From assembly GCF_004684205.1 (NCBI RefSeq), contig NZ_SRIO01000014.1, forward strand, positions 1-64,000: a stretch of 64,000 nucleotides of DNA, in the 5' to 3' direction. The translations under genes and the position numbers were made by a program. Every line of letters begins with the position of its first letter. Position 1 is the stretch's first letter. The notes under the pieces are model-generated. The model was not told the origin of the DNA. It worked only from the letters and a program-made list of their open reading frames with translations, and did not search any database. Below, in pieces: positions 41,815 to 62,797 of the stretch. Source of the stretch: Candidatus Macondimonas diazotrophica (GTDB taxonomy: Bacteria; Pseudomonadota; Gammaproteobacteria; UBA5335).

Positions 41815-42684
41815 TCAGGCGGTGCGTGACAACGCCTCGGTCCGGCCGGCGGTGAGCTGCGCCTGCAGGGCATCGGCGAACGCCGCGAGCGGCAGTTCCA
41901 GCCGGGTGATGCCGTGCTGTTCCAGGAAACGGGCTTCGTTGCGCGTCGGTTCGGCGGCGAGCACGGCGTAGTGCGTTTCCGAGGAGCGTTTGCTGATCTG
42001 GTGGGCAAAGATGCGTTCGGTCTGGCTGGTGAAACGGCAGCCGAGAAACAGGAACGCGCGGTCGCGGCGGCGTTCCTGCACCAGCGGCGGAATCGGCGTC
42101 TGGATGTCGATCTCGGTCAGCACCTCGACGAAATCGGCATCGGACACGAGGAAATTCGGCCGCGGCTCGACCGCGCCCCACGGCTGGTAGAGCACCAGCG
42201 TCCGCTCGGCGAGCGCGGTGAGCTCGAGATCGGTGCCGTCCGCCGCCATGGCCTGGTACCAGGTGCCGAAATGCTCGGACTGGCTCAACCCCTGGATCAG
42301 CCCGAAGTCGGGCCAACCGGCCAGCGCGGTGCGCATGACATCGTCGTACCAGAGCTGGACGATGAGCGGAATGGACGGCAGCGCCGCCAGCGTCCGGTGC
42401 AACGGTGAGGGGGTGAGCGTCGGCGCAAACGCTTGACGCATCAGGTCCACCAGCGTCTTGCGGTGCTTGAAGTTCTCGATGTACTGGGCGCTGGCACCAA
42501 GATTTCCCCGAGCGCGGCCCGGCACGGTGACCTTGCTGCCCAGAAAAATGGCCAGCGCTTCCAGGGAGGCGGGAACGGTGCCTGCTTCGGGGCACAGATC
42601 CACCATGCCGGGACCCAGATAGGGAATCATGCGACCGGCGCTCAGGCCGCTGGCGATGACTTCCAGATGATTCGTATCGTTCAT
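41815..42684 (-). CDS. SIR2-like domain protein of the nif operon
   Basis: The product has 289 residues. The start RMIPYLGPGMVDLCPEAG corresponds to the nucleotide-binding loop of SIR2-like proteins (usually GAGxS, here GPGMV). The C-terminal part, DRAFLFLGCRFTSQTERIFAHQISKRS followed by HYAVLAAEP, is the typical SIR2_2-type ending. Such domains bind or cleave NAD. It is the last gene of the nifB operon, overlapping the gene before it by 4 bp, so it is probably expressed with nitrogenase genes. The role in nitrogen fixation is unknown; NAD-linked control is a guess. Confidence 0.75.
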   Translation of the reverse strand: MNDTNHLEVIASGLSAGRMIPYLGPGMVDLCPEAGTVPASLEALAIFLGSKVTVPGRARGNLGASAQYIENFKHRKTLVDLMRQAFAPTLTPSPLHRTLAALPSIPLIVQLWYDDVMRTALAGWPDFGLIQGLSQSEHFGTWYQAMAADGTDLELTALAERTLVLYQPWGAVEPRPNFLVSDADFVEVLTEIDIQTPIPPLVQERRRDRAFLFLGCRFTSQTERIFAHQISKRSSETHYAVLAAEPTRNEARFLEQHGITRLELPLAAFADALQAQLTAGRTEALSRTA

Positions 42685-42905
42685 GCTGCGACCTCGGCAA
42701 CGGCTTGTTCGTGCAGCCCGCCCATGGCGTCGGGTGCGATGCGAAACACAGCCCGCCCGCCGGAGAGCGTGAGATAGGACAGGCCGCTCTGGCGGGTCAG
42801 GAAGTTGAACCACTGCTGCGCGGTGCAGCCCGCTGGCCGCTCGCCGATTTCCATCACGGTGCCATCGGGGGCGAAACGGACGTGGATCATGACATCGGTA
42901 CTCAT
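42681..42905 (-). CDS. small nif-operon protein of unknown function
   Basis: This 74-residue protein reads MSTDVMIHVRFAPDGTVMEI, then ERPAGCTAQQWFNFLTRQSG and YLTLSGGRAVFRIAP, giving a likely beta-hairpin plus helix fold. I do not recognise a named family. It overlaps the SIR2-like gene by 4 bp and follows the DegT-like gene after 30 bp, so translation is probably coupled within the nifB operon. Confidence 0.75.
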   Translation of the reverse strand: MSTDVMIHVRFAPDGTVMEIGERPAGCTAQQWFNFLTRQSGLSYLTLSGGRAVFRIAPDAMGGLHEQAVAEVAA

Positions 42906-42935: not shown

Positions 42936-44093
42936 TTACAGATAGATGGCGGACCCCGCCCCCACGTTGATGGAAGCGTCCTTGGCGGTCTGGACGATGA
43001 AGCTGACTTCCTCGGCGTCGAGACGGCTGTGAAACGGCAGCGCCAGTGCGCGATCGGCCAGCTTGTCGGTCACCCACAAGTCCTGGCGCGGGCGCTGCTT
43101 GTCGAAATAGCGCGCCTGGCGATGCAGCGGCAGGCAATAGGCCGCCGCCTCCACCCCGGCGGTGGCCAGATCGTCGACGATGTCGTCGCGGCTGCTGCGG
43201 CTGAAACGGGTGCCCAGGTGTACCAGTGACAGGAACCAATGCACCTCGTCCACATCCGGCGCCGCATAGGGTGGCTTGATCCCCTCGAAGGACTGGATGA
43301 CATCGAGGTAATGGGCCTCGATGGTCTTGCGTTGACTCAAGACTTCATCGAGCCGGGTCCACTGTGCCAAGCCGAGCCCCGCGTTGAGCTCGCCCATCGC
43401 GAGACCCGCAACCGGCAATCCCCCCGCCACCACCGAGCCGCGATCGGACAGGCGCCGATCGCGCAGCAGCCGCAACCGACTGGCCAGATCGATGTCGTCG
43501 GTCACGATCACCGCGCCCGCGCCGCAGGCGATGGCCCCCGGCTGGGTGAAATCGAAAATGGCGCAGTCGCCGAAGCTGCCGACGGCCCGGCCCTGGTAGA
43601 CCGAACCGACCGCCTCGGTGGAATCCTCGATCAGCAGCAATCCATGAACGCTCGCCAGTTCCCGCAGCTCGGCCCACGGGGCCGGATGGCCGTTGGCATT
43701 GGCTACCACGAGTGCGCGGGTCTGGGGAGTCAGGCGCGCCGCAATTTTTTCCGCGGTCAGACAGCCCGACCAGTAGTCGACATCGGCAAACACGACGCCG
43801 ACCCCGGCGAAGACTGCGCCATCGGCGAGCTGGCGCCACCCATACGAGGGCGCCACCACGTCGCTGCCCGGTCCGATGCCGGCGGCCCGCAGGATCAGCC
43901 ACAGCGCCAGGGTGGAACTGCTCAGGCACAGCGCGTGGCGACGTCCGAGACGTTCCGCCACCGCCGCTTCCAGGCGTTCGGTGAGCGGGCCGGCAGTGAT
44001 GTACGGCGAACCCATCACCGCGGCCACCATCTGCCGCTCCAGGTCGCTGAAGTCCGGCTCGCTGAGCAGGATGTCGTAGTCGGCGGGTTTCAC
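42936..44093 (-). CDS. DegT/DnrJ/EryC1-like fold protein lacking the PLP lysine
   Basis: The product has 385 residues and matches the DegT/DnrJ/EryC1/StrS aminotransferase family across its length: GPLTERLEAAVAERLGRRHALCLSSSTLALWLILRAAGIGPGSDVV, then IEDSTEAVGSVYQGRAVGSFGDCAIFDF. At the usual FSFHxxK the sequence is FDFTQPG (180-186), so Gly186 replaces the PLP-binding lysine. The enzyme therefore cannot form the normal Schiff base and may be a pseudoenzyme or a structural or regulatory protein. The start is the GTG at 44093, overlapping the preceding stop (GTGA). It belongs to the nifB operon. Confidence 0.82.
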   Translation of the reverse strand: MKPADYDILLSEPDFSDLERQMVAAVMGSPYITAGPLTERLEAAVAERLGRRHALCLSSSTLALWLILRAAGIGPGSDVVAPSYGWRQLADGAVFAGVGVVFADVDYWSGCLTAEKIAARLTPQTRALVVANANGHPAPWAELRELASVHGLLLIEDSTEAVGSVYQGRAVGSFGDCAIFDFTQPGAIACGAGAVIVTDDIDLASRLRLLRDRRLSDRGSVVAGGLPVAGLAMGELNAGLGLAQWTRLDEVLSQRKTIEAHYLDVIQSFEGIKPPYAAPDVDEVHWFLSLVHLGTRFSRSSRDDIVDDLATAGVEAAAYCLPLHRQARYFDKQRPRQDLWVTDKLADRALALPFHSRLDAEEVSFIVQTAKDASINVGAGSAIYL

Positions 44094-44365
44094 GATGCGG
44101 CCCTGCGACGACGCTGGGCGACCACCAGCGCGGTGGCCACCGCCGGATCCTGTGTGAGCTGCCAGCAATGCCCCGAGCCGTCCACCAGATAGACCTCGAA
44201 TTCCGGGTACGCCCGATAGGGTCGGCCCTCGGTCATGTCGGCGGCATCGCAGACCGTGATCGACCGGCCGGGCAGCTCGCGACGCAGCCGCGCCAGCCAA
44301 TCCGGCGGCGCCTCGGTGCTGAACACGTCTTCCAGACAGGCGAGATCGGCGGCATCCATGGTCAT
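44090..44365 (-). CDS. small hypothetical nif-operon protein
   Basis: The 91-residue protein contains LACLEDVFSTEAPPDWLARLRRELPGRSITVCDAADMTEGRPYRAYPEFEVYLVDGSGHCWQLTQDP. It looks like a compact alpha/beta domain with a basic tail. I cannot assign a family. It overlaps nifT by 4 bp upstream and the DegT-like gene by 4 bp downstream, so it is firmly part of the operon. Confidence 0.75.
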   Translation of the reverse strand: MTMDAADLACLEDVFSTEAPPDWLARLRRELPGRSITVCDAADMTEGRPYRAYPEFEVYLVDGSGHCWQLTQDPAVATALVVAQRRRRAAS

Positions 44366-44571
44366 TCCCCCAGCCGGCGTGCGTCGACCGTCAACGGCAG
44401 CCGCGTGTCAGCGGCCATCGCCGGCAACTCGAGCCGCCAGCCGTTGGCCAGGGTGACCACCCCGCCCCACATATCGGGGTTGTCCATGGAGACGATGGGC
44501 TCTTCAAGGTCTTTCTTGGGCACATAGGCCGACAGCGCACCGGCGGCATCGCGGCGAATCATGACTTTCAT
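44362..44571 (-). CDS. nifT: nitrogen fixation protein NifT/FixU
   Basis: The product has 69 residues. MKVMIRRDAAGALSAYVPKKDLEEPIVSM is the conserved NifT/FixU start, followed by WGGVVTLANGWRLELP. NifT is a small conserved protein of nif clusters with no settled function; in several species it is dispensable. AGGGGA lies upstream of the ATG. Confidence 0.92.
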   Translation of the reverse strand: MKVMIRRDAAGALSAYVPKKDLEEPIVSMDNPDMWGGVVTLANGWRLELPAMAADTRLPLTVDARRLGE

Positions 44572-44593: not shown

Positions 44594-45751
44594 TCAGCCG
44601 CCCTGGGCAGCGGCGGCCTCGGGGGCCAGGGTGGAAAGAACCGTCGCCAGTGCGGCGAGCGCCTGTTCCACCTCGGCCATGGTGTTGTAGCGTGAGAAGG
44701 AAAAACGCACCGCGCTGTTGGCCAGCGCTTCGTCCTTGTGCATGGCCATCAGCACATGCGAGGCCTGGCTGCCGCCGGCGACGCAGGCGGCGCCGTTGGC
44801 TGTGGCAATGCCGGCCCGGTCCAGCCGCTGCACGATGGCCTCGCCGTCATAACCGGGAAAGCTGATGTTGCTGGTGCCGGCCAGGCGCTCGGCCGCGGCG
44901 CCGTTGATCCGGGCCGCGGGATACAGCGCGCGTACCCCGGCTTCGAGCCGGTCGCGCAGTCCGGCGATCGTGTTCGACGGCGCCTTCAGGGCCTCGCCCG
45001 CCAGGCGGCAGGCCTCGCCCAGCCCGGCGATGGCCGGCACGTTCAGGCTGCCGCCGCGCCGGCCGCGTTCCTGGGTGCCGAAGAACAGGGGGGGCAGGTT
45101 GATCTCGCTGCGAATGTAGAGCGCGCCGATGCCTTTGGGCGCGTGCAGCTTGTGTCCCGAAAACGACAGCAGGTCGATCGGAACGCGCGAAAGGTCCAAC
45201 GGCTGCTTGCCGGCGGTCTGCGCGGCATCGACATGCAGCAGCACCGCGCGCGCGCGGGTCAGCGCCGCGATTTCCTCGACCGGGAACAACACGCCGGTTT
45301 CGTTGTTGGCGGCCATCAGCGAGACCAGCGCCGTGTCGGGCCGCAGCGCCGCTTCCAGATAGTGGACGCGCAGCCGTCCCTCACGGTCGACCGGCAGATA
45401 GGTGACCGCCACGCCCTGCTGTTCCAGATGGCGACACAGCTTCAGCACCGCCGGATGTTCCACGGCGCTGGTGATGAGGTGACGGCGCTCAGGATGCAGG
45501 GCGAGCGCACCCTGGATCGCCCAATGGATGCTTTCCGTGGCCCCGCTGGTGAAATGGATCGTTTTGGCCGGCACATTGAACAGTGCGGCGACCTGCGCCC
45601 GCGCGCTGCGCACCGCCGTGGCGGGTGCCTCGGCCAGTTGGTGCGGGCTCGAGGGATTCCCGAACGCCTCACGCAGATAGGGCAACATGACGTCCAGAGC
45701 TTCGGGCGCCAGCGGTGTGGTTGCGTTGTGGTCAAAGTAGATCAGCGACAT
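44594..45751 (-). CDS. nifS: cysteine desulfurase NifS
   Basis: This 385-residue PLP enzyme releases sulfur from cysteine for nitrogenase Fe-S clusters. Features are YFDHNATTPLAPEAL at the start, FTSGATESIHWAIQG, the PLP lysine in SFSGHKLHAPKGIGALY, RRGGSLNVPAIAGLG, and the persulfide-forming cysteine in GAACVAGGSQASHVL. The region GSACxSGxxxPSHVL of standard NifS is slightly altered here but keeps the Cys. It lies 8 bp after the DUF3024-like gene in the nifB operon. Confidence 0.96.
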   Translation of the reverse strand: MSLIYFDHNATTPLAPEALDVMLPYLREAFGNPSSPHQLAEAPATAVRSARAQVAALFNVPAKTIHFTSGATESIHWAIQGALALHPERRHLITSAVEHPAVLKLCRHLEQQGVAVTYLPVDREGRLRVHYLEAALRPDTALVSLMAANNETGVLFPVEEIAALTRARAVLLHVDAAQTAGKQPLDLSRVPIDLLSFSGHKLHAPKGIGALYIRSEINLPPLFFGTQERGRRGGSLNVPAIAGLGEACRLAGEALKAPSNTIAGLRDRLEAGVRALYPAARINGAAAERLAGTSNISFPGYDGEAIVQRLDRAGIATANGAACVAGGSQASHVLMAMHKDEALANSAVRFSFSRYNTMAEVEQALAALATVLSTLAPEAAAAQGG

Positions 45752-45759
45752 GGCACACC

Positions 45760-46302
45760 TCAGGGCCAGAACAGCCGATCGGGATCCTCACCCAGCACCG
45801 CCAGCGCGGCGCCGAGCGAAGGAAAGAATCCGTGCGTGACCCAGCACTGCTGCGCGTGATCCCGATACTGCAGCAGCCATTGCCCGTTATGGGGCGCTTG
45901 CAGCAGCCGGGCGATGTCGATCAGGCCGCCGGCGGGATCGATGTTGCGTGAGCAACACGGGCTTTCGATGCGGTAGCCGCCCGCGATGCCGATCACCTGC
46001 GGCTCGACGTAGCGGTAGCGGCGCCGATTTTCCAGCGTGCGGCGGATGCGGCGCACATCCAGTTCGTTGGGATGCGCGCTGACCGGCTGCGCGGGGCTGG
46101 GCGGGACGATTGTGCTGGACATGCCTGGTTCTCCCATCCGCCATTGGCTGCATGCATCCACGCAGGCGGCCATCCAGACAGCCAGGGTTCGCATCAACCT
46201 TGCGCGCCAGCCGGACTCTGCGGTGCGGGCCGCATTGCCGCCCATCGGGACCTCCGGCGCAGAGGTGCGGTCGGCCTCGGGCCGCGCGTGGACACGATTC
46301 AT
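45760..46302 (-). CDS. DUF3024-like nif-associated protein
   Basis: The product has up to 180 residues. The conserved part is NELDVRRIRRTLENRRRYRYVEPQVIGIAGGYRIESPCCSRNIDPAGGLIDIARL, with a CC pair, resembling the DUF3024 family. The ATG at 46302 overlaps the nifZ stop by 4 bp, in the style of this operon. However, the first 60 residues are poorly conserved in character, and the ATG at 46122 with GGGAG upstream may be the real start, giving 120 residues. Function is unknown. Confidence 0.72.
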   Translation of the reverse strand: MNRVHARPEADRTSAPEVPMGGNAARTAESGWRARLMRTLAVWMAACVDACSQWRMGEPGMSSTIVPPSPAQPVSAHPNELDVRRIRRTLENRRRYRYVEPQVIGIAGGYRIESPCCSRNIDPAGGLIDIARLLQAPHNGQWLLQYRDHAQQCWVTHGFFPSLGAALAVLGEDPDRLFWP

Positions 46303-46610
46303 CGTCCGTTCTCGTCGGCGGGCGCGAGCTTGGCATCGGCTTCGGGCAACCGGTCCAGCGACACGAGCTCCTTGGCTTTCATGCCGACCCGATGACCGGT
46401 TTCCAGGAAGTCCACACCGTAGATGTAGAACTGCTGAAGAAAGGTGCCGATGTGGCTGACGTAGCCGAGATCACCCTTGCGCACCAGGATTTCGCCGATC
46501 TCCTTGCCGACGTAGGTGCCGTCGTTGCGGATGGTCTTGCGCGAGCGCACTTTCTCGCCAAAGCGGAAGACGGGTTCGTCGTCCAGTTCACTGGGTACGC
46601 CATCACTCAT
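46299..46610 (-). CDS. nifZ: nitrogenase maturation protein NifZ
   Basis: The product has 103 residues. FRFGEKVRSRKTIRNDGTYVGKEIGEILVRKGDLGYVSHIGTFLQQFYIYGVDF is the full NifZ signature. NifZ helps form the second P-cluster of the MoFe protein. It is preceded by an AAGGAGG ribosome site and lies 24 bp after the LRV-FeS gene. Confidence 0.95.
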   Translation of the reverse strand: MSDGVPSELDDEPVFRFGEKVRSRKTIRNDGTYVGKEIGEILVRKGDLGYVSHIGTFLQQFYIYGVDFLETGHRVGMKAKELVSLDRLPEADAKLAPADENGR

Positions 46611-46634: not shown

Positions 46635-47432
46635 TCATGAAACACAGCGGGACGGACCCGCTTCATCAAGGGCCGCGTCGCAGCGCAGCTGCGCCATGCG
46701 GCGCACCTCGGCGTCGTCGTCGCTGAGCAGCGCGCCGAGCGCATCGACTGGAATCCGGCGGGCAATTTCGTAGCGGACCCGCCAATCCGGATCGCTGCGC
46801 AGCGCAACCAGCTGGGCCGGGGGCAGGCGCTCGATCGTCACCAGGCGCACGGCCGGATCGGGGTCACGGGCCATGCGCGGCAGCAGCGTGGAATCGGCCC
46901 GATGGGCCACCACCTTGCGCACTTCGGCTTCCGGATCCGCGGCCATCAGGGGCAGCAGGCCCGGCGCCAATCGTTTGGCCACGATCTGGCGCACGTAGTA
47001 ATCGGGGTCATGGATCATCGCGAACAGATCCCCCGCACGGATGCGCGAGGCAACCCGGATGCGAACCTCGCGGTCCGGGTCGTGGCTGAGCTTGTGCAGC
47101 TGGGTGATGGGCAGACGCTGCGCCACGCTCCAGCGCACGGTCTCGTCCGGGTCGCTCAGAAGACGGGCGAGATGGAACAAGTCCGCATGCCGGGCGGCCA
47201 CCGCCCGCACCTCGAAATAGGAATGTGTCAGGGCGTCGTTCGCGCATTCCGGATTCAGGGCAAAGAAGCGATCGATGCGGGGCGCATAGCGATCCTGCAT
47301 GCACGACCAGCTCGGGCCGCAGCGTTGCGATGCCAGTCGTTCCCGATGAGGACAGGCCGCGCAGTCGATGGGTCGCCCGGTCCAGTCCAGGGTCTCGGTG
47401 ATCACGCCTGTGGAGGCTTGCGGCTCAGTCAT
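46635..47432 (-). CDS. LRV protein with 4Fe-4S cluster domain
   Basis: The product has 265 residues. The N-terminal part carries four cysteines in the pattern C-x2-C near 26-29, then C about 11 and 17 residues later (CAACPHRERLASQRCGPSWSC), the cluster-binding domain of the leucine-rich-repeat-variant (LRV) protein first known from the Azotobacter nif region. About eight repeats of some 24 residues follow, each like DPDxxVRxxVAxRLxxxxLxxLxx. The concave helical repeat probably binds a partner protein. ATG 47432 has a strong GGGAGGGAGG and overlaps the upstream gene by 8 bp. Confidence 0.88.
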   Translation of the reverse strand: MTEPQASTGVITETLDWTGRPIDCAACPHRERLASQRCGPSWSCMQDRYAPRIDRFFALNPECANDALTHSYFEVRAVAARHADLFHLARLLSDPDETVRWSVAQRLPITQLHKLSHDPDREVRIRVASRIRAGDLFAMIHDPDYYVRQIVAKRLAPGLLPLMAADPEAEVRKVVAHRADSTLLPRMARDPDPAVRLVTIERLPPAQLVALRSDPDWRVRYEIARRIPVDALGALLSDDDAEVRRMAQLRCDAALDEAGPSRCVS

Positions 47433-47985
47433 CGTCCTCCCTCCCCTGCCGGTCCAGAACCTGGAGCAGGACACGGCCGCCCAGCCGATCATCGGGATCG
47501 AGCTGACCCAGTTTTTCCAGCATCGGCCGCCCAGCTTCGGGCTCGCCGAGGCGCAGATGCAGATAGCCGCAGCCCTTGAGACAAAACAGATAGAAACGCG
47601 GCAGCGCCGCGGCGTAATCGCCGAACCGCGCATCGCCGGCCTGCACCGATCGCCAGTCCGCAGCCAGGCCTGCCATGGCGGCGGCCCACGCCAGACAGCG
47701 CATGCCGACGGCGAGGCTCTCGCGCAGCCGACCGCCGTAGAAGTGGAAGCGGTAAAAGCCGATCAGTACGGCCGGATGGTCCGGTGCCAGACGCTGGGCT
47801 TCGGTCAGATGGGCCCGACAGGCCGCCTCGTCACTGTAGTCGCGCCCGGCCGCCTCGAGGGCGATGCGCGCACGGTCGGGCAGTCCGGCGGCGCAGCAGA
47901 TCACGGCGGTCGGATCGAGCGTGTCCAGCCATGCCCCTGTCGATTCAGAGGCCTCGTGCGCGATGCGCCGGCTGCGGATGTTCAT
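47425..47985 (-). CDS. TPR-like nif-associated protein, copy 1
   Basis: The 186-residue helical protein has tetratricopeptide-like repeats: HLTEAQRLAPDHPAVLIGFYRFHFYGGRLRESLAVGMRCL and LPRFYLFCLKGCGYLHLRLGEPEAGRPMLEKLGQLDPDDRLGGRVLLQVL. It is paralogous to the protein at 58499-58999 after fixX, sharing HFY-x-x-L, ADWRS and RFYLF-LK-x-x-x-x-LRLG. It probably mediates protein contacts during Fe-S or nitrogenase assembly; this is inference. It lies 16 bp after the IscA-like gene. Confidence 0.8.
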   Translation of the reverse strand: MNIRSRRIAHEASESTGAWLDTLDPTAVICCAAGLPDRARIALEAAGRDYSDEAACRAHLTEAQRLAPDHPAVLIGFYRFHFYGGRLRESLAVGMRCLAWAAAMAGLAADWRSVQAGDARFGDYAAALPRFYLFCLKGCGYLHLRLGEPEAGRPMLEKLGQLDPDDRLGGRVLLQVLDRQGREDDD

Positions 47986-48001: not shown

Positions 48002-48385
48002 TCAGGCTTCGCCGGACGGCGGAGTGCGCCGCTCGATGGAACTCACCGATACCGTTGCCGGGCCCATGGTGCTGGCACTGCTGCAGGCACACGGACCTTT
48101 GCCGGCAGTCTGGAAAACCAGCCCGCTGGTGGTGGCCGTGTCGACGAAATCCATGGTGGCCCCGTCGAGCAGCTCGGCGCTCGGAGCCGGCAGGAACAGC
48201 CGCAGTCCCCCGTGTTCGAAGACGACTTCGCCGTTCTGCGGCGCCGGCTCGACGCTGAATTCGCTGCTCAGGCCGGAGCATCCACCCGGCGTCACCACCA
48301 GGCGGAAGCCGCATTGCTCACCACCGCCGAAGCGCACCATGCGCCGGATGAATTTTTCCGCGGCCGGCAGAATGGAAAGTTCCAT
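48002..48385 (-). CDS. HesB/IscA-like iron-sulfur carrier
   Basis: This 127-residue A-type carrier has the three expected cysteines: FRLVVTPGGCSGLSSEF and, near residue 98, GPCACSS (C-x-C rather than the more usual GxGCGC). It is expected to pass Fe-S clusters to nitrogenase-related targets. It corresponds to the IscA homologue often found between nifU or nifB and nifS. AGGAG lies upstream. It is 15 bp after the fdxN gene. Confidence 0.88.
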   Translation of the reverse strand: MELSILPAAEKFIRRMVRFGGGEQCGFRLVVTPGGCSGLSSEFSVEPAPQNGEVVFEHGGLRLFLPAPSAELLDGATMDFVDTATTSGLVFQTAGKGPCACSSASTMGPATVSVSSIERRTPPSGEA

Positions 48386-48399
48386 GAGCGGGATCTCCT

Positions 48400-48624
48400 T
48401 CAGGCCTGCGGCTGGTAGCGTGGCTGGGCGGGATCGATGATGCAGGTCTTGTCCACGGGGCAGACCGCCTCACATTGCGCCTCATCGAAATACCCGATGC
48501 ATTCGGTGCATTTCTTCGGGTTGATGGCGAAGATCCCGTCTTTTTCGTAGATCGCCACATTGGGGCATACGGGTTCGCAGGCCGAGCAGCCCGTGCATTG
48601 GGAACCAACGATTTTGTAGGACAT
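48400..48624 (-). CDS. fdxN: 2[4Fe-4S] ferredoxin FdxN
   Basis: The product has 74 residues. [13 protein letters not shown] provides one cluster motif. The second, [18 protein letters not shown], has the loop insertion typical of nif-linked FdxN ferredoxins, which are encoded directly after nifB. FdxN supplies electrons for NifB or nitrogenase. AGGAGG lies upstream of ATG 48624. A hairpin terminator separates it from nifB. Confidence 0.92.
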
Positions 48625-48643
48625 GACAACCTCCTGGGGTCTC

Positions 48644-48690
48644 AAAAAAATGGGGGCGGGATACGCCGAGGCTGACCGCCCCGCCCCCAT
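48644..48690 (-). terminator. Rho-independent terminator or attenuator between nifB and fdxN
   Basis: Read leftward, just after the nifB stop, ATGGGGGCGGG pairs perfectly with CCCGCCCCCAT (11 bp stem, 19 nt loop) and is followed by seven T residues. It lies inside the operon, so it probably lets nifB be made in excess of the genes downstream. Confidence 0.8.
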
Positions 48691-48710
48691 CACGTGTCGA
48701 CCGCCTCCGA

Positions 48711-50285
48711 TCAAGCGGCGACATACGCTCCCTGGCGAATGGCGGCATCACCCTTGGGTTGATGCACGATGGCGCCGCTCTCGACTTGTTCGAGATAGTT
48801 CTTGAAATAGGCGATCACCGAGCGCTCGATGAACTCCTGGGCATACGCGTCCACAGGCTCGATGCCGGCCTGCTTGAGCGTGTCCTTGGGACAGCCGCCG
48901 ATCTTGGCGACGAAGACGGCGTGGCAGTCGTTGATGGCCCGGATGACGGTGTCGAGCGCGTCCTCTTCGCCATAGCCGCCCTGGCAGTACAGATCGACGC
49001 GGCGATGGCCGACGAACTTGGCGCCGTCCACACTGGTTTCGTAGATCTGGAACTCCGATGCGTGGCCGAAGTGCTCGTTGATCTTGCCGCCGCCCTTGGT
49101 GGCCACGGCGACCAGCATCTTGATGTCGCTGTGCAGCCCGGCCAGCTCGGACAGCTCGTCGCGCTTGGCGGCGACCTGCTCCTGGCGCTTGCGCTCCACT
49201 TCCGCCTGATAGGCCTTGCGGGTGTCGCCGTCGTAGTTCACCTCCATGGCCATGATCTTGTCGGTGGTGAATTCGGCCGAGCGGTCCTCGCCGAGCAGGC
49301 CCACGGCGTCGGCGCGGCACTGGCGGCAGTGACGCATCATGTTCATTTCGCCCGAGCAGGCATCCTGAAGGGCCTTGAGCTCCTGCGCGGTGGGACCGCG
49401 CTGGCCGTTCAGGCCGAATACGGTGCCGTGCTCCGGGGAGGAGATGAGCGGCATGATGTTGTGCAGGAAGGCCCCGCGCGACTTCACGGCCCGGTTCACG
49501 TCCACCAGATGCTTGTCGTTGATGCCGGGAATCATCACCGAGTTGATCTTGGTGAGGATGCCACGGGCGGTGAGCATCTCCAGACCCTGGAGCTGGCGAT
49601 CGGTGAGGATCTGCGCGGCATCACGGCCCTTGTAGCGCTTGTTGTTGTAGTAGATCCACGGATAGATCTCGGCGCCCACATCGGCATCGATCATGTTGAT
49701 GGTGATGGTCACGTGATCGACGTTGAAATTGGCGATGGTGTCGATGTGATCCGGCAAGGCCAGACCATTGGTCGACAGGCACAGCTTGATGTCCGGCGCG
49801 GTTTTCGCGATGAGCTCGAAGGTCTTGAAGGTCTTCTCGGGATTGGCGAGCGGATCACCGGGGCCGGCGATGCCGAGCACCGTCATCTGGGGGATGGTCG
49901 AGGCCACCGCCAGTACCTTCTTGGCGGCCTGTTCGGGGGTCAGCTTTTCGCTCACCACGCCGGGGCGGGACTCGTTCGCGCAGTCGTACTTGCGGTTGCA
50001 GTAGTTGCACTGGATGTTGCAGGCCGGGGCCACCGCCACGTGCATGCGCGCGTAGTGATGGTGTGCCTCTTCGCTGTAGCAGGGATGGTTCTTGACCTTC
50101 TCCCAGATCTCCGGTGCCAGATCGCCGGCACCGGCCCCCGAGCCGCAGCTCGACTTGCCGCTGCCGCCCGAGGTGCCGCAGCCGTTGTGATCCTCTGCAA
50201 TCTTTGCGGCGATCTCGCTGGCCGAGCCGGCCACCGCAACGCTGATCTGACCCAGCTTGTCATTGATCCCGATTCGTTCTTGCAT
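48711..50285 (-). CDS. nifB: FeMo-cofactor biosynthesis radical SAM protein NifB
   Basis: The 524-residue product builds NifB-co, the 8Fe-9S-C core of FeMo-cofactor. The radical SAM motif is C-x3-C-x2-C in [14 protein letters not shown] (about 89-102). [32 protein letters not shown] and [12 protein letters not shown] are NifB blocks. Residues from about 385 ([27 protein letters not shown]) form the C-terminal NifX-like domain. A Ser/Gly-rich stretch with extra cysteines lies near 36-52. ATG 50285 has GGAGGG upstream. It is transcribed from a sigma-54 promoter with a perfect NifA site. Confidence 0.97.
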
Positions 50286-50351
50286 GACGCCCTCCGGCAT
50301 GTGTCCTTTTCGCATCGGGACGGCGCGTCCCAACGCTGGCCATCACTTCCC

Positions 50352-50418: not shown

Positions 50419-50434
50419 TGTCGCGCACCCGACA
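50419..50434. promoter_or_regulatory. NifA upstream activator site of nifB
   Basis: TGTCGCGCACCCGACA is a perfect TGT-N10-ACA palindrome, about 50 bp upstream of the nifB -24 element and shortly after the nifA stop codon region. Confidence 0.8.
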
Positions 50435-50558
50435 TGCCGGGAGCAGGTGGGGAATCAAATGTTCGGTATGCGACACGGGGCCCGGCGTCGAGGGGCGCCG
50501 GGTGCGTGGACGGGGGATGGGGAGAAATCGGTTCGGGGAGGCGCCGGCGGGCGGGGTG

Positions 50559-52190
<1,632 letters not shown>

Positions 52191-52301: not shown

Positions 52302-52317
52302 TGTCGCAAACCCGACA
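52302..52317. promoter_or_regulatory. NifA upstream activator site of the nifV operon
   Basis: TGTCGCAAACCCGACA is a perfect TGT-N10-ACA site about 130 bp upstream of the nifV -24 element, in the nifA-nifV divergent region. It could also influence nifA itself. Confidence 0.82.
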
Positions 52318-58999: not shown

Positions 59000-59402
59000 A
59001 ACCCGGTCCGTCCATGCGGCTGCCGGCGACGATCTGGCCGCCGTCGCCGCAGCCGCGGCACCCATGGGCGAAGCGCTGCTGGCCGCTGCCCGCAATCAGC
59101 TGGCCCGATGGCAGCTCGATACGCGGGTGCGCATCCCGCCCTGGACGGACGGGCGCTACACGCGGCACACCGATCCGGCCAGCGGACTGCCCAGCCTGCG
59201 CGCGGATTTTTTCTCCGCCGGCGGCCAGCGCAAGGGTCATCTGCTGAGGCATGGGGATGGCAGCTGGTATGGCGAGTTCGAGGTGTGTCTGTCGCATCCG
59301 GCACGCAGCGGATGGTGGATCGAGGTGGTGGAGGTCTGGGGCAGCGGCGAGACCGTGAAAAGTGAGCTGCGCCTGCTGGCCCTGCCCGACGATGCGTCAT
59401 GA
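58989..59402 (+). CDS. hypothetical protein of the fix-downstream group
   Basis: The product has 137 residues, with an Ala-rich helical start, then an aromatic beta-rich segment: WYGEFEVCLSHPARSGWWIEVVEVWGSGETVKSELRLLALP. I do not recognise a family. It overlaps the TPR gene by 11 bp and the following gene by 4 bp, so it is probably translated with them. Confidence 0.75.
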   Translation: MPPETRSVHAAAGDDLAAVAAAAAPMGEALLAAARNQLARWQLDTRVRIPPWTDGRYTRHTDPASGLPSLRADFFSAGGQRKGHLLRHGDGSWYGEFEVCLSHPARSGWWIEVVEVWGSGETVKSELRLLALPDDAS

Positions 59403-60214
59403 GCACGCCCTGGGCCGTCTACGACCTGCTGGCGGATCAGGTTCCGCCGCGCGCCGTGGCCGAGGCGGTCCAGCTGGGACTCATCTGGACGCTCTGCCGT
59501 GGCCCGGACGGCACGGGTCTGGCGATGACGCCGCCCGCATCCCCGCGCACCCTGTCCTGGGCCGGCACACTGAGCGGCCGGCCTCTCGCTGAACTGGCCG
59601 GCTGGCTGCGCCGCTTCGATCCCCACGAGGCCGTCATCGGGCTGGCGGCGGTGAATGCGGCGATCAACACATCCGCCAATCATGTGCTGGCCGGCGCCAC
59701 GCCGGTGCGCGGTGCGGCGCCGGGTAATCTCGCCGTCTTCGACCACTTCAGGCCGCAGCTGTGCGGGCGCCGGGTGGTGGTGATCGGGCGCTATCCGGGC
59801 CTCGATGCGCTGCTGGAGGGGCTGGATGTGACGGTGCTCGAGCGCCAGCCCGGTCCGGGCGACCTGCCCGATCCGGCCTGTGAATTCCTGCTGCCCGAGG
59901 CCGACTGGGTATTTCTCACCGCCAGCAGCCTCGCCAACAAGACCTTCCCCCGGCTGGCCGAGCTCAGCCGCCAGGCCACCACGGTGCTGATGGGTCCGGG
60001 AACGCCGTGGCTGCCCGCATTCGCCGCGTTCGGCATCGACTATCTCGCCGGGGTGGCGATCGACGATGCCGCTCAGCTGCGACGCACCCTTGCCGAAGGC
60101 GGCGGCACCCGCCTGTTCGACGGCCCGGTGGCCTACCGTGTCGCCGATCTGCACCGGCTGCGCGGGGTGCCCGCCGCGCCGCAATCCCACGCCCCCTCCC
60201 TGCCATCTGTTTGA
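59399..60214 (+). CDS. DUF364/DUF4213-like protein
   Basis: The product has 271 residues. The N-terminal half contains LGLIWTLCRG and EAVIGLAAVNAAINT, the second half VFDHFRPQLCGRRVVVIGRYPGL and ADWVFLTASSLANKTFPRLAELS followed by TVLMGPGTPWLPAFAAFGIDYLAGV. This pattern matches the DUF4213-DUF364 pair, a Rossmann-like fold proposed to bind heavy metals. Next to FixABCX and nif genes it may handle molybdenum or iron; this is inference. It overlaps the previous gene by 4 bp. Confidence 0.78.
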   Translation: MSTPWAVYDLLADQVPPRAVAEAVQLGLIWTLCRGPDGTGLAMTPPASPRTLSWAGTLSGRPLAELAGWLRRFDPHEAVIGLAAVNAAINTSANHVLAGATPVRGAAPGNLAVFDHFRPQLCGRRVVVIGRYPGLDALLEGLDVTVLERQPGPGDLPDPACEFLLPEADWVFLTASSLANKTFPRLAELSRQATTVLMGPGTPWLPAFAAFGIDYLAGVAIDDAAQLRRTLAEGGGTRLFDGPVAYRVADLHRLRGVPAAPQSHAPSLPSV

Positions 60215-60226
60215 GGAGTTCCGCTC

Positions 60227-60439
60227 ATGGCCATTGCCTACGATCAACTCAAAGCCGATTCCGCTCTGTGCGCCGGAACCCGCAAGGCCGGCCAGAAATG
60301 TAACGGCACCGTCCACGTCTGTGGCGCGTGCGGCGCGCGTGGCTGCAAGCAGAACCAGGGCAGCTGCACCGGACAGGCCTTCGATGTGCTCGATCGCTGC
60401 ATCCAGTGCGGCGCGCTCGCCATGCAACCCGCCGGCTGA
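60227..60439 (+). CDS. small Cys-rich zinc-ribbon-like protein
   Basis: The product has 70 residues with seven cysteines, including C-x2-C pairs in HVCGACGARGCKQNQGSC and RCIQCGAL. It probably binds zinc or an Fe-S cluster. It follows the DUF364-like gene after 12 bp, with GAGGAG upstream. No family name can be given. Confidence 0.75.
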   Translation: MAIAYDQLKADSALCAGTRKAGQKCNGTVHVCGACGARGCKQNQGSCTGQAFDVLDRCIQCGALAMQPAG

Positions 60440-60557
60440 CGCGCGCATGCGGTGATGCGCATCGCCCGCTCATGCTGCCCCCGGCGACGGGCGCCTGCCG
60501 CGCCGCAATCGCACCCTGACGCTGCCGCGTTTCATCGATCCGACAAGGAGCACGATC

Positions 60558-60887
60558 ATGTTCACCAAAGCCTGCGATCTGAGCGAGCTGAAAGAGGGCA
60601 AGACCGACGTGGCCGCCGTCGAGCGCACGCTGGTGCTGCTGGTCTGGCCGACCGGCGGCAAGCCCATGGCCTTCCAGGGCATGTGCCCGCACGCCAACGA
60701 ACCACTCATGGATGCTTTCTTCAATGGCAAGGTGATCGCCTGCCGCCATCATGACTGGGAATTCGACGGCACGACGGGCGCCTGCATCCGCGGCAAGCCT
60801 TGCCGCCTCGCCGAATATCCCCTCGAGATCCGGGGCGAGGAGATTCTGGTCGACGTGGCGGGCGTGACGCCCAACCGCGCCGCCTAG
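60558..60887 (+). CDS. Rieske [2Fe-2S] protein, nif-linked, copy 1
   Basis: The 109-residue soluble Rieske protein has cluster motifs CPHAN (about 43-47) and CRHHDWEFD (about 62-70), giving C-x-H and C-x2-H. It is closely related to the truncated gene at the right end of the window (WPTGGKPMAF and CRHHDW against WPTGGELKAY and CPHHQW). It could donate electrons or serve as a redox sensor in the nif system. AAGGAG precedes the ATG. Confidence 0.9.
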   Translation: MFTKACDLSELKEGKTDVAAVERTLVLLVWPTGGKPMAFQGMCPHANEPLMDAFFNGKVIACRHHDWEFDGTTGACIRGKPCRLAEYPLEIRGEEILVDVAGVTPNRAA

Positions 60888-60975
60888 GACCGTGCATCCG
60901 GCCTGTGCCGGGGGTGATGGCGCTGGGTGATACGCGGCCCCACGCGTCGTCCGTCAACCCATGAGGAGTTCGTTC

Positions 60976-61221
60976 ATGTCTGTCGCAGAAGGTTATTTCG
61001 TCGATTGGGACGGCAACGCACGCAGCACCCTCGCGCCCGGTGGCGGCTATGCCTGCGAGACCGACGTGCCCGCCCGCTATGTCGCCATCACCACGCAAAG
61101 CGGCACGCTGGTGCATGAATCGAGCTTCTACAAGAGCCTGGACGATCTCGCGAAAGCCGGCATCAAGGCCACGCTGGTGCCCGGCTCGCATCCGTGGGGA
61201 AGCCGCCGGGACGGCTTTTGA
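60976..61221 (+). CDS. small hypothetical protein of the fix-downstream group
   Basis: The product has 81 residues: MSVAEGYFVDWDGNARSTLA at the start, then ETDVPARYVAITTQSGTLVHESSFYKSLDDLAKAGIKATLVPGSHPWG. It looks like a small beta-rich domain. GAGGAG precedes ATG 60976. The family is unknown. Confidence 0.72.
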   Translation: MSVAEGYFVDWDGNARSTLAPGGGYACETDVPARYVAITTQSGTLVHESSFYKSLDDLAKAGIKATLVPGSHPWGSRRDGF

Positions 61222-61250
61222 GTTCATCCGGCCCTGAGGGAGATGCGGTC

Positions 61251-61490
61251 ATGCTGCCCACCACCATTCTGGTCGATGAAGCGCCGCGCTGCGTGGTGCG
61301 ACCCACCGACGCCAAGGCGCTCAACCGCTTCATTCGCAACGCCAAGGTGCTTCTGCTCGGGGACAACACCGGCGGCGCCATTACCCACCGGCCGGCCGAC
61401 GCGCCCGAGCTGGCGCGCTGGCGGGACGCCCTGGCCCTGCACGAGGCCTGCGGCGGCTCCGAGGACGAGTTCTTCGGCGTTCCGTTGTAG
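61251..61490 (+). CDS. small hypothetical protein ending the fix-downstream group
   Basis: The product has 79 residues, e.g. MLPTTILVDEAPRCVVRPTD and NAKVLLLGDNTGGAITHRPADAPELARWRDALALHEACGG. GGGAG lies upstream of ATG 61251. It ends the rightward gene series begun at nifV. No family is recognised. Confidence 0.72.
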   Translation: MLPTTILVDEAPRCVVRPTDAKALNRFIRNAKVLLLGDNTGGAITHRPADAPELARWRDALALHEACGGSEDEFFGVPL

Positions 61491-61701
61491 CAAAGCGCGC
61501 CCGGGGCGTCGTCACCGATCGGCGAAGATGGCCGGTCCGTGTTTCGGGGCAGGTAATCGTCCCGCAGGAACGGTGCGAATCTGGCTACCCGGCGTGCGCC
61601 CGAATCGGTTCCCTGCATCCCGGTCTCGAAATCGCCGTGCAACGCCCCGGATGTCGGTCGCGATGGTCCGCAACGGCGGCGAGCCGGGCTGCGGCGATGA
61701 T

Positions 61702-62085
61702 TCACTGCAGGATGTTCGGCACCATCAGCCGAAACGGCGCGATGCGGGCATCGAACGCATTGCCTTGGGCTTCCACCATCTGAAAGCTGCCGTGCAGGGT
61801 GCCGACCGGTGTGTCGAGCGGGCAGCCGCTGACATACTGAAACGATTCGCCGGGCGCGATGATCGGCTGGTAGCCCACCACGCCGGGGCCGCGCACTTCC
61901 TCGACGGCGCCCTCCCCGTTGGTGATGATCCAGTGGCGCGAGCGGAGCTGGACCGGAGTCTCGCCCTCGTTGCGGATGATGATGTGATAGCCGAAGACGA
62001 ACAGGCCGCTGTCGGGATCGGACTGCTCTGGCACGAAGCGGGGCTCGGCGATGATGCGGACGCCGCGGGTCAGGGTATTGCTCAC
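61702..62085 (-). CDS. apaG: ApaG family protein
   Basis: The 127-residue product is the normal ApaG length. EPRFVPEQSDPDSGLFVFGYHIIIRNEGETPVQLRSRHWIITNGEG, then VRGPGVVGYQPIIAPGESFQYVSGCPLDTPVGTLHGSFQMV are typical of ApaG, a fibronectin-like fold of unknown precise function linked to Ap4A metabolism and magnesium in other bacteria. I chose the GTG at 62085, with GGAG upstream, because the family starts there. Confidence 0.92.
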   Translation of the reverse strand: MSNTLTRGVRIIAEPRFVPEQSDPDSGLFVFGYHIIIRNEGETPVQLRSRHWIITNGEGAVEEVRGPGVVGYQPIIAPGESFQYVSGCPLDTPVGTLHGSFQMVEAQGNAFDARIAPFRLMVPNILQ

Positions 62086-62164
62086 GGTTGGCTCTCCGGA
62101 TGACAAAAAGACGCGGGCTGCGCCGTGTTGAGTCTTTGAGCGCACGCAGACCACACTGCCGGGT

Positions 62165-62797
62165 TCACGACCGATACCCCTCCTCGGCCAGCACCTGGCG
62201 CACCACCGGCAGCGCGCGCAGGCGCCGGTAGTAGGCCGCCACGCGCGGCGGCAGCGGGATTTCCGTCCTGTCGGCCCAGAATGCGTTGTAGAACAGTGCG
62301 GCGTCGGCGATGGTGAAGCGCTCGCCGGCCGCGTAGCCCTCGTCCGGCAGGCGCTTTTCGAGTGCCCCGAAGGCCTGCATGACGATCTCGCGCCCGTGCG
62401 CCGTCACGTCCTCGCGCGCCCGCGTGCCGGGTTCGGCGAGGTAGCGTTCGGCGGTGAAGATGCGCGTGAAGCCCTCGCCGTGCAGCTGGCCGAGCGCGAA
62501 GTCGAGCAGCTCCACCGCCCGCGCCGCGAGCGGTGGATCGTCCGGCAGCAGCCGGGCACGCGGGTAGCGTGCGGCGAGCCACAGCGCGATCGAGCGAAAG
62601 TCGGTGAGCGGCGGGCCGTCGTCCGGCACCAGCGTCGGGATGGTGCCGCGCGGGTTGATGGCGAGGTACTCGGGCTTCAGATGATCGCCGGCCGGCAGGT
62701 TCAGCACCCACGCCTCGAACGGCAGCTCCAGTGTTTCCAGCAGGATGTGGATGCCGGTCGAGCAGGAACCGGGCGTCATGTAGAACTTCATGGCCAT
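62165..62797 (-). CDS. glutathione S-transferase family protein
   Basis: The product has 210 residues with a thioredoxin-fold N-terminal domain (MKFYMTPGSCSTGIHILLETLELPFEAWVL, then NPRGTIPTLVPDDGPPLTDFRSIALWLAARYP) and a helical C-terminal domain with GERFTIADAALFYNAFWAD. The Ser/Cys near residue 12 fits the beta-class GSTs. GST genes occur in several nif regions, perhaps for oxidative protection. Start 62797 or the Met two codons later is possible. Confidence 0.9.
   Translation of the reverse strand: MAMKFYMTPGSCSTGIHILLETLELPFEAWVLNLPAGDHLKPEYLAINPRGTIPTLVPDDGPPLTDFRSIALWLAARYPRARLLPDDPPLAARAVELLDFALGQLHGEGFTRIFTAERYLAEPGTRAREDVTAHGREIVMQAFGALEKRLPDEGYAAGERFTIADAALFYNAFWADRTEIPLPPRVAAYYRRLRALPVVRQVLAEEGYRS

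What the first reader, a model, noticed from the sequence alone, without database searches (positions are those of the whole stretch)
41815..42684. SIR2-like NAD-binding protein at the end of the nifB operon
Seen: a SIR2-type fold pattern with GPGM replacing the usual GAGxS loop, and 4 bp overlap with its operon neighbour. Known: SIR2-like domains consume or bind NAD and often act in stress or immunity. Inference: it could tie nitrogenase expression or assembly to NAD state, for example in place of the NAD-dependent ADP-ribosylation control used by other diazotrophs.
Basis: partly seen in the sequence, partly recalled or inferred. Interest (0 to 1): 0.55.

Follow-up and report, generated by a model that had tools for sequence, protein, structure and literature searches.

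The report
Catalytically dead SIR2-fold nitrogenase accessory protein
The last gene of this nitrogen-fixation operon makes a protein with the shape of an NAD-cutting SIR2 enzyme but without its cutting residues; close relatives sit in the nitrogen-fixation genes of many bacteria, so it is probably an overlooked helper of nitrogenase and not an NAD-consuming switch.

Summary
Observation confirmed. Window 41815-42684 (-) encodes a 289-aa SIR2_2 protein, last gene of a nifB operon, overlapping a 74-aa ORF by 4 bp. AlphaFold2 gives a confident ThsA-like SIR2 fold.

The link to nitrogen fixation is strong: 75 of 80 related loci carry core nif genes; the other five lack upstream sequence. In 397 Pseudomonadota genomes the family is in 19 of 42 with nifH and 3 of 355 without.

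NAD consumption is not supported. Of 113 distinct members none keeps both catalytic residues: 100 have Trp for Asn, 13 keep Asn but lose His. Of 23 other SIR2_2 proteins, 19 keep both. It does not generally replace DraT: 8 of 19 nifH-bearing carriers have DraT, although this genome has none.

Gene order identifies Pseudomonas stutzeri PST1325 as a divergent member; its mutant kept 23% of nitrogenase activity (PMC2820453). Best reading: a NifA-driven pseudoenzyme that assists nitrogenase maturation. SIR2-annotated nif genes are in print, one guessed to be a deacetylase (PMC8600466); my searches found no report of the dead active site.

The parts
41815..42684 (-). nif-associated SIR2-fold protein, 289 aa, type I (W112, W169), last gene of the operon
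42681..42905 (-). 74-aa protein of unknown function, 4-bp overlap with the SIR2 gene; a homologue lies just upstream of it in 43 of 86 loci
   Evidence: predicted beta-beta-alpha-beta-beta-alpha fold, pLDDT 92, no significant PDB match
42936..44300 (-). DegT/DnrJ/EryC1-type PLP aminotransferase (start uncertain)
   Evidence: Pfam PF01041 5e-70; same neighbourhood in 51 of 80 loci
44090..44365 (-). small DUF6129-like protein
   Evidence: below the Pfam cut-off here; homologue L007 above it
44362..44571 (-). nifT
   Evidence: PF06988 3e-31
44594..45751 (-). NifS-like cysteine desulfurase
   Evidence: TIGR03402 best match 452 bits, below its cut-off of 531
45760..46302 (-). DUF3024 protein
   Evidence: PF11225 1e-17
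46299..46610 (-). nifZ
   Evidence: PF04319 2e-31
46635..47633 (-). LRV protein with 4Fe-4S domain (start uncertain)
   Evidence: PF01816, PF05484
47425..47985 (-). TPR-like protein
   Evidence: weak TPR matches; conserved in the operon
48002..48385 (-). IscA/HesB-type protein
   Evidence: TIGR00049 4e-15, just below its cut-off
48400..48714 (-). 4Fe-4S ferredoxin (fdxN-like; start uncertain)
   Evidence: conserved neighbour; named 4Fe-4S binding protein in annotated relatives
48711..50333 (-). nifB, first gene of the operon
   Evidence: TIGR01290 688 bits
50352..50367 (-). sigma-54-like -24/-12 element TGGCATAGCTGTTGCT (1 mismatch to the pattern searched)
50419..50475 (.). two NifA-type upstream sites TGT-N10-ACA (50419-50434, 50460-50475)
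50559..52190 (-). NifA-like activator gene upstream of nifB
   Evidence: ORF; member of a cluster labelled NifA; label recalled, supported by annotated relatives with nifA before nifB

Best explanation
The gene encodes a nitrogenase accessory protein: a ThsA-like SIR2 domain recruited into nif operons and no longer able to cleave NAD by the known mechanism. Shown here: fold, family, operon position, nif-linked distribution, and loss of the catalytic pair in every member examined. Shown by others in relatives: NifA dependence (R. capsulatus), induction under nitrogen fixation (P. stutzeri, Z. mobilis), and loss of most nitrogenase activity in a P. stutzeri mutant. Inferred: under NifA/sigma-54 control it is made together with NifB, NifZ, NifT and iron-sulphur proteins and acts by binding, not catalysis, most likely as an assembly or maturation factor for the nitrogenase proteins or their clusters. 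Whether the old nucleotide pocket still holds a ligand is open.
For: AlphaFold2 pLDDT 94.8; best structural matches are the SIR2 NADases ThsA, DSR2 and KomC (Foldseek E 1.9e-11; VIA Z 21.0, rmsd 3.2, 255 residues). Profile alignment places WYD on the TTNYD of ThsA and KomC. 0 of 113 distinct members have both N and H; 19 of 23 other SIR2_2 proteins do. The nif members form one clade apart from 22 controls (support 100/99). 75 of 80 loci carry core nif genes; genome co-occurrence Fisher p 4.5e-18. NifA/sigma-54-like sites before nifB. R. capsulatus Rcc03262 is in the operon nifB1-rcc03265-nifZT-rcc03262 and was not found in the nifA double mutant (PMC6925177, passages). PST1325 non-polar mutant: 23% activity, the lowest of nine tested (PMC2820453 section 8); its gene order is matched by type II loci.
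Against: No binding partner, ligand or biochemical step is known. The mutant phenotype is for type II, about 24% identical to type I, in one strain, by plasmid integration; PST1325 was identified by gene order and annotation, not by aligning its sequence. 23 of 42 nifH-bearing genomes lack the family, so it is not essential to nitrogenase in general. Thirteen type I members keep His (7, 6 more), so the pocket is not uniformly eroded. The Azoarcus Tn-Seq passages I read name nifZ, nifW, nifU and others but not this gene (PMC9769520).
Confidence: 0.6

Rival explanations
1. Ligand sensor: the protein still binds NAD(H), ADP-ribose or another nucleotide without cleaving it and reports the cell's redox or energy state to nitrogenase or its assembly line.
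For: SIR2 fold kept; the first Gly of the loop is in 113 of 113 and the second in 93 of 113 members; other conserved polar residues: E70 and R75 in 113 of 113, D182 and D184 in 112 of 113.
Against: The loop Ser of GAGxS is Leu in most members; the second Gly is Asp, Glu, Ala, Arg or Gln in 20 of 113; ThsA N112A did not bind NAD+ (PMC7272460).
Confidence: 0.2
2. Partner in or substitute for the DraT/DraG system, for example a reader of ADP-ribosylated Fe protein or a replacement where DraT is absent.
For: DraG in 16 and DraT in 10 of 80 loci (identities confirmed on sample members); this genome lacks DraT; carriers tend to have DraT less often (8/19 against 17/23, p 0.059).
Against: 8 of 19 carriers have DraT, 11 do not, so neither strict partnership nor strict replacement holds; the trend is weak and not corrected for ancestry.
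Confidence: 0.1
3. Active NAD-dependent deacetylase of nif proteins, as suggested for ZMO1821 in Zymomonas (PMC8600466, passages).
For: SIR2 fold; ZMO1821 was reported up under nitrogen fixation and acetylated nif proteins were found there.
Against: Four Zymomonas-like genomes (genus g256; gene order as described for ZMO1821 in the two laid out) all have Trp for the catalytic Asn. The window protein has only two Cys, too few for the four-Cys zinc site of sirtuin deacetylases (recalled).
Confidence: 0.05
4. Anti-phage SIR2 NADase parked in a nif island.
For: Nearest solved structures are defence NADases.
Against: No PADLOC match, no effector or sensor domain in 289 aa, catalytic residues lost, tight operon linkage and co-occurrence with nifH.
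Confidence: 0.02

Closest known systems
SIR2_2 (Pfam PF13289) defence NADases: ThsA of Thoeris, DSR2, KomC
   Same: Same fold (VIA Z about 17-21) and above the Pfam cut-off
   Different: Never both catalytic Asn and His; no further partner domain in the chain; encoded in nif operons
SIR2-annotated genes in nif clusters: Rcc03262, PST1325, ZMO1821, gene 5 of the Rhodovulum 'slow' operon
   Same: Same kind of place in nif clusters; NifA-dependent or induced under nitrogen fixation where measured; this window's gene is one more of these
   Different: In the passages read they are only named SIR2-like or, for ZMO1821, guessed to be a deacetylase
Nitrogenase assembly factors NafH, NifW, NifZ, NafY/NifY (PMC6016461, passages)
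   Same: Works-like comparison only: nif-regulated, not strictly essential, encoded beside nif genes
   Different: No sequence relation tested; no MoFe-protein binding shown for the SIR2 protein
DraT/DraG control of Fe protein
   Same: Also involves NAD chemistry (recalled) and nif genes
   Different: Different families; both are present in 8 of 19 nifH-bearing carriers

Membership tests
SIR2_2 domain family (PF13289) | Sequence score above the curated cut-off | tested here: met
   62.2 bits against 24.5; type II L122 28.5 bits
SIR2_2 domain family (PF13289) | SIR2 Rossmann-like fold | tested here: met
   pLDDT 94.8, Foldseek and VIA matches
SIR2-type NADase | Catalytic Asn and His pair | tested here: not met
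   W112 and W169 in the window protein; 0 of 113 distinct members have both
SIR2-type NADase | GAGxS-type nucleotide loop | tested here: not met
   GPGMV here; Ser is not among the residues listed at position 28 (top five per type); pattern G[AS]GxS or close found in 16 of 22 controls
SIR2-type NADase | NAD+ hydrolysis | not testable with these tools
   needs an assay
Sirtuin deacetylase | Four-Cys zinc module (recalled) | tested here: not met
   only C31 and C216 in 289 aa
Thoeris ThsA | C-terminal SLOG domain | tested here: not met
   289 aa; a single SIR2 domain spans the model
Nitrogenase accessory factor (works like) | NifA/sigma-54-dependent expression | tested here: inconclusive
   consensus sites before nifB; protein-level NifA dependence only in R. 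capsulatus (PMC6925177)
Nitrogenase accessory factor (works like) | Loss lowers nitrogenase activity | not testable with these tools
   published for PST1325 only: 23% of wild type (PMC2820453)
Nitrogenase accessory factor (works like) | Found in genomes and loci with nif genes | tested here: met
   75 of 80 loci; 19 of 22 clear carriers have nifH, two of the other three have nifB-linked loci

The most novel reading that the evidence does not exclude
A SIR2 NADase was captured by nitrogen-fixation operons, lost its catalytic pair by two different routes (Asn to Trp in type I, His to Leu/Met in type II), and became a nitrogenase maturation factor carried by 19 of 42 sampled nifH-bearing proteobacteria: a pseudo-sirtuin that binds a nitrogenase or cofactor-assembly intermediate, a function not described for the SIR2 fold in the papers I found.
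Probability: 0.45. Interest if true: 0.72.

Novelty: new variant of a known kind. Interest (0 to 1): 0.55.

Why it matters
Moving nitrogenase into new hosts depends on knowing every helper gene. This one is present in 19 of 42 sampled nifH-bearing Pseudomonadota genomes, has a published loss-of-activity phenotype in one relative, and carries a label (SIR2, deacetylase) that points experiments the wrong way. A dead active site makes simple tests possible: binding partners and nucleotide binding instead of enzyme assays.

Tried and rejected
PADLOC and NCBIfam gave no match for the protein. phmmer of the single sequence against PDB chains gave nothing significant; the alignment profile did. My label 'DraT?' for one neighbour cluster was wrong: it is NifQ by Pfam; the true DraT was cluster 26, and counts of DraT in this report use cluster 26 and PF07357. 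NafH was considered as the A. vinelandii counterpart and dropped: its deletion (residues 4-73) implies a much smaller protein. A GxS motif regex was not informative in controls (7 of 22) and is not used. The 74-aa neighbour's fold search gave no match with E below 0.26. The sigma-54 and UAS patterns are each no more frequent in the window than in shuffles; only their placement before nifB is suggestive. Rows dropped before counts: G338 (E 6e-4, match to 122 positions, no nif genes recognised near it) was left out of the carriers; with it 19 of 23 carriers have nifH. G374 was kept although its copy is a remnant. Of 28 control matches 5 nif-family ones were set aside. Control L171 could not be aligned. 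Positions were read on MAFFT additions to A2, so single-cell errors are possible. A first count of 76 of 80 loci with nif genes leaned on a NifA-cluster member in L021; without that cluster it is 75.

Full report
Check of the observation. The ORF at 41815-42684 on the minus strand is 289 aa. Its start overlaps the stop of a 74-aa ORF by four bases. Pfam finds SIR2_2 at 7e-17. On the same strand upstream lie, in order from nifB: a 4Fe-4S ferredoxin, an IscA-type protein, a TPR-like protein, an LRV iron-sulphur protein, nifZ, a DUF3024 protein, a NifS-like desulfurase, nifT, a DUF6129-like protein, a DegT-type aminotransferase, the 74-aa ORF and the SIR2 gene. The genes are closely spaced or overlapping; several starts are uncertain. 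A sigma-54-like element precedes nifB, with two NifA-type sites 52-108 bases further upstream. Each pattern alone is not enriched in the window; their joint position is what a NifA promoter looks like. dN/dS is 0.18-0.21 (NG86) against three relatives.

Fold. AlphaFold2 with an alignment of 48 sequences gave mean pLDDT 94.8. Foldseek's best PDB matches are ThsA, DSR2 and KomC, SIR2 NADases of phage defence, and VIA-align gives Z 21.0 with 255 residues at 3.2 A for BcThsA.

Relatives and setting. A scan of genome contigs gave 80 loci at 47-86% identity. Clustering their ORFs shows core nif genes (nifB, T, Z, H, D, K, E, X or NifX-associated) in 75 of 80; in the other five the gene begins within 2-2078 bases of the end of the stored sequence. 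Hosts by record title include methanotrophs, Acidithiobacillus, Rhodopseudomonas, Thiobacillus, Azoarcus/Aromatoleum, Zoogloea, and two MAGs labelled Bryobacterales and Binataceae. On plasmids the family is in 75 of 72,556 records, 55 of them Rhizobium; the four that I opened (R. etli p42d, Paraburkholderia pBN1, Methylococcus sp. EFPC2, Bradyrhizobium sp. BWA-3-5) have it within a few genes of nifT and nifB.

Genome-wide test. In 397 Pseudomonadota genomes (at least 90% complete) the profile matched 23; one (G338) is marginal and was dropped. Of the 22, 19 have nifH over the curated cut-off; 42 of 397 have such a nifH. Fisher p is 4.5e-18 (genomes are related, so this is not a clean probability). 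Of the three without nifH, G048 and G214 carry nifA, nifB, fdxN, nifZ and nifT directly beside the gene, so nifH is probably missing from the assemblies; G073 shows no nif gene in the 13.5 kb available. One of the 19, G374, holds only a remnant.

Active site. The profile aligns WYD of the family with TTNYD of SeThsA and KomC, so residue 112 is the place of the Asn needed for NAD+ cleavage in ThsA (N112; PMC7272460, passages) and DSR2 (N133; PMC10981675, passages). Position 169 precedes the invariant Gly where other SIR2_2 proteins have the catalytic HG. Among 113 distinct sequences, 100 have Trp at 112 and 13 have Asn; His at 169 is in 7 of the 100 and none of the 13; none has both. Six more from a later search are Trp plus His. 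In 23 non-nif SIR2_2 matches from 60 genomes, 14 have both by a strict pattern and 5 more by alignment to the profile of those 14; the other four are L160 and L175 (Asn only), L173 (cut short) and L171 (not alignable). A tree puts the nif members in one clade (100/99) with two branches, type I (93/91) and type II (100/100), apart from 22 controls; many control branches are long, so deeper joins are unsure.

Type II and the published phenotype. Type II members were found next to or near nifH or nifB in five of the six loci laid out from the phylum sample and family (L118-L122; L115 is the exception). In one genus (g9, names not given), 7 of 56 genomes have one. In two of them (L148, L149) the order is NafY/NifX-type gene, a gap of about 2 kb, SIR2, nifH, nifD, nifK, nifT, NifY-type, DUF6129-like, LRV, nifE (the first gene by Pfam PF02579). 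This is the order of P. stutzeri A1501 PST1322-PST1333 (PMC2820453, passages), in which PST1325 is called a SIR2 family protein elsewhere (PMC11332353, passage). So PST1325 is very probably type II. Its non-polar mutant had 23% of wild-type nitrogenase activity, the lowest of nine genes tested (PMC2820453 section 8). The authors list it only as a conserved hypothetical protein.

Type I in the literature. R. capsulatus Rcc03262 ends the operon nifB1-rcc03265-nifZT-rcc03262 and was not found in the nifA1-nifA2 mutant proteome (PMC6925177, passages). ZMO1821 of Zymomonas was up under nitrogen fixation and proposed as a likely deacetylase (PMC8600466, passages). Four 1.9-2.1 Mb genomes of one genus, very probably Zymomonas by size and by the nifA-nifB-fdxN-nifZ-nifT-SIR2-nifHDK order in the two laid out, have Trp at 112, so a classical deacetylase is unlikely. 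The searches listed no paper whose title or opening abstract reports the dead active site or a function; I did not read every listed paper, and most subscription journals are not held.

ADP-ribosylation control. DraT (PF07357) is in 28 of 397 genomes: 8 of the 19 nifH-bearing carriers and 17 of the 23 nifH-bearing non-carriers (p 0.059). This genome has none. In the 80 loci, 16 have DraG and 10 DraT nearby. The family is therefore neither tied to nor a general substitute for DraT.

Mechanism. I think the protein acts by binding. Invariant or nearly invariant in 113 members are G24, E70, R75, P168, G170, D182, D184, V186, P199, R206, G215 and R224; R75 has a counterpart in ThsA, so part of this is fold maintenance and does not name a ligand. 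Co-transcription with cofactor-assembly genes and the PST1325 phenotype favour maturation; this step is inference. In half of the loci the 74-aa protein is encoded just before it (43 of 86) and may be its partner; its predicted fold has no significant match.

Noticed in passing
window 42681-42905: 74-aa conserved protein without Pfam, NCBIfam or PDB-fold match, directly upstream of the SIR2 gene in 43 of 86 loci; predicted as a compact beta-beta-alpha-beta-beta-alpha domain.
   Followed up: partly
window 42936-44300: A DegT/DnrJ/EryC1 sugar-type aminotransferase is a steady member of this nif operon (51 of 80 loci) with no obvious role in nitrogen fixation.
   Followed up: no
window 45760-46302: DUF3024 protein inside the nif operon, in 17 of 87 loci.
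   Followed up: no
window 59237-62797: Several 150-400 aa ORFs on the minus strand; the four tested had no NCBIfam match.
   Followed up: no
L108, L110-L114: Some genomes carry extra, broken fragments of the nif SIR2 gene besides or instead of an intact copy.
   Followed up: partly
window 52302-52317: A NifA-type TGT-N10-ACA site lies upstream of nifV (52495, +).
   Followed up: no
L146:9773-10342: 189-aa protein without Pfam match next to the type II SIR2 gene and nifH; may match the PST1324 position.
   Followed up: partly
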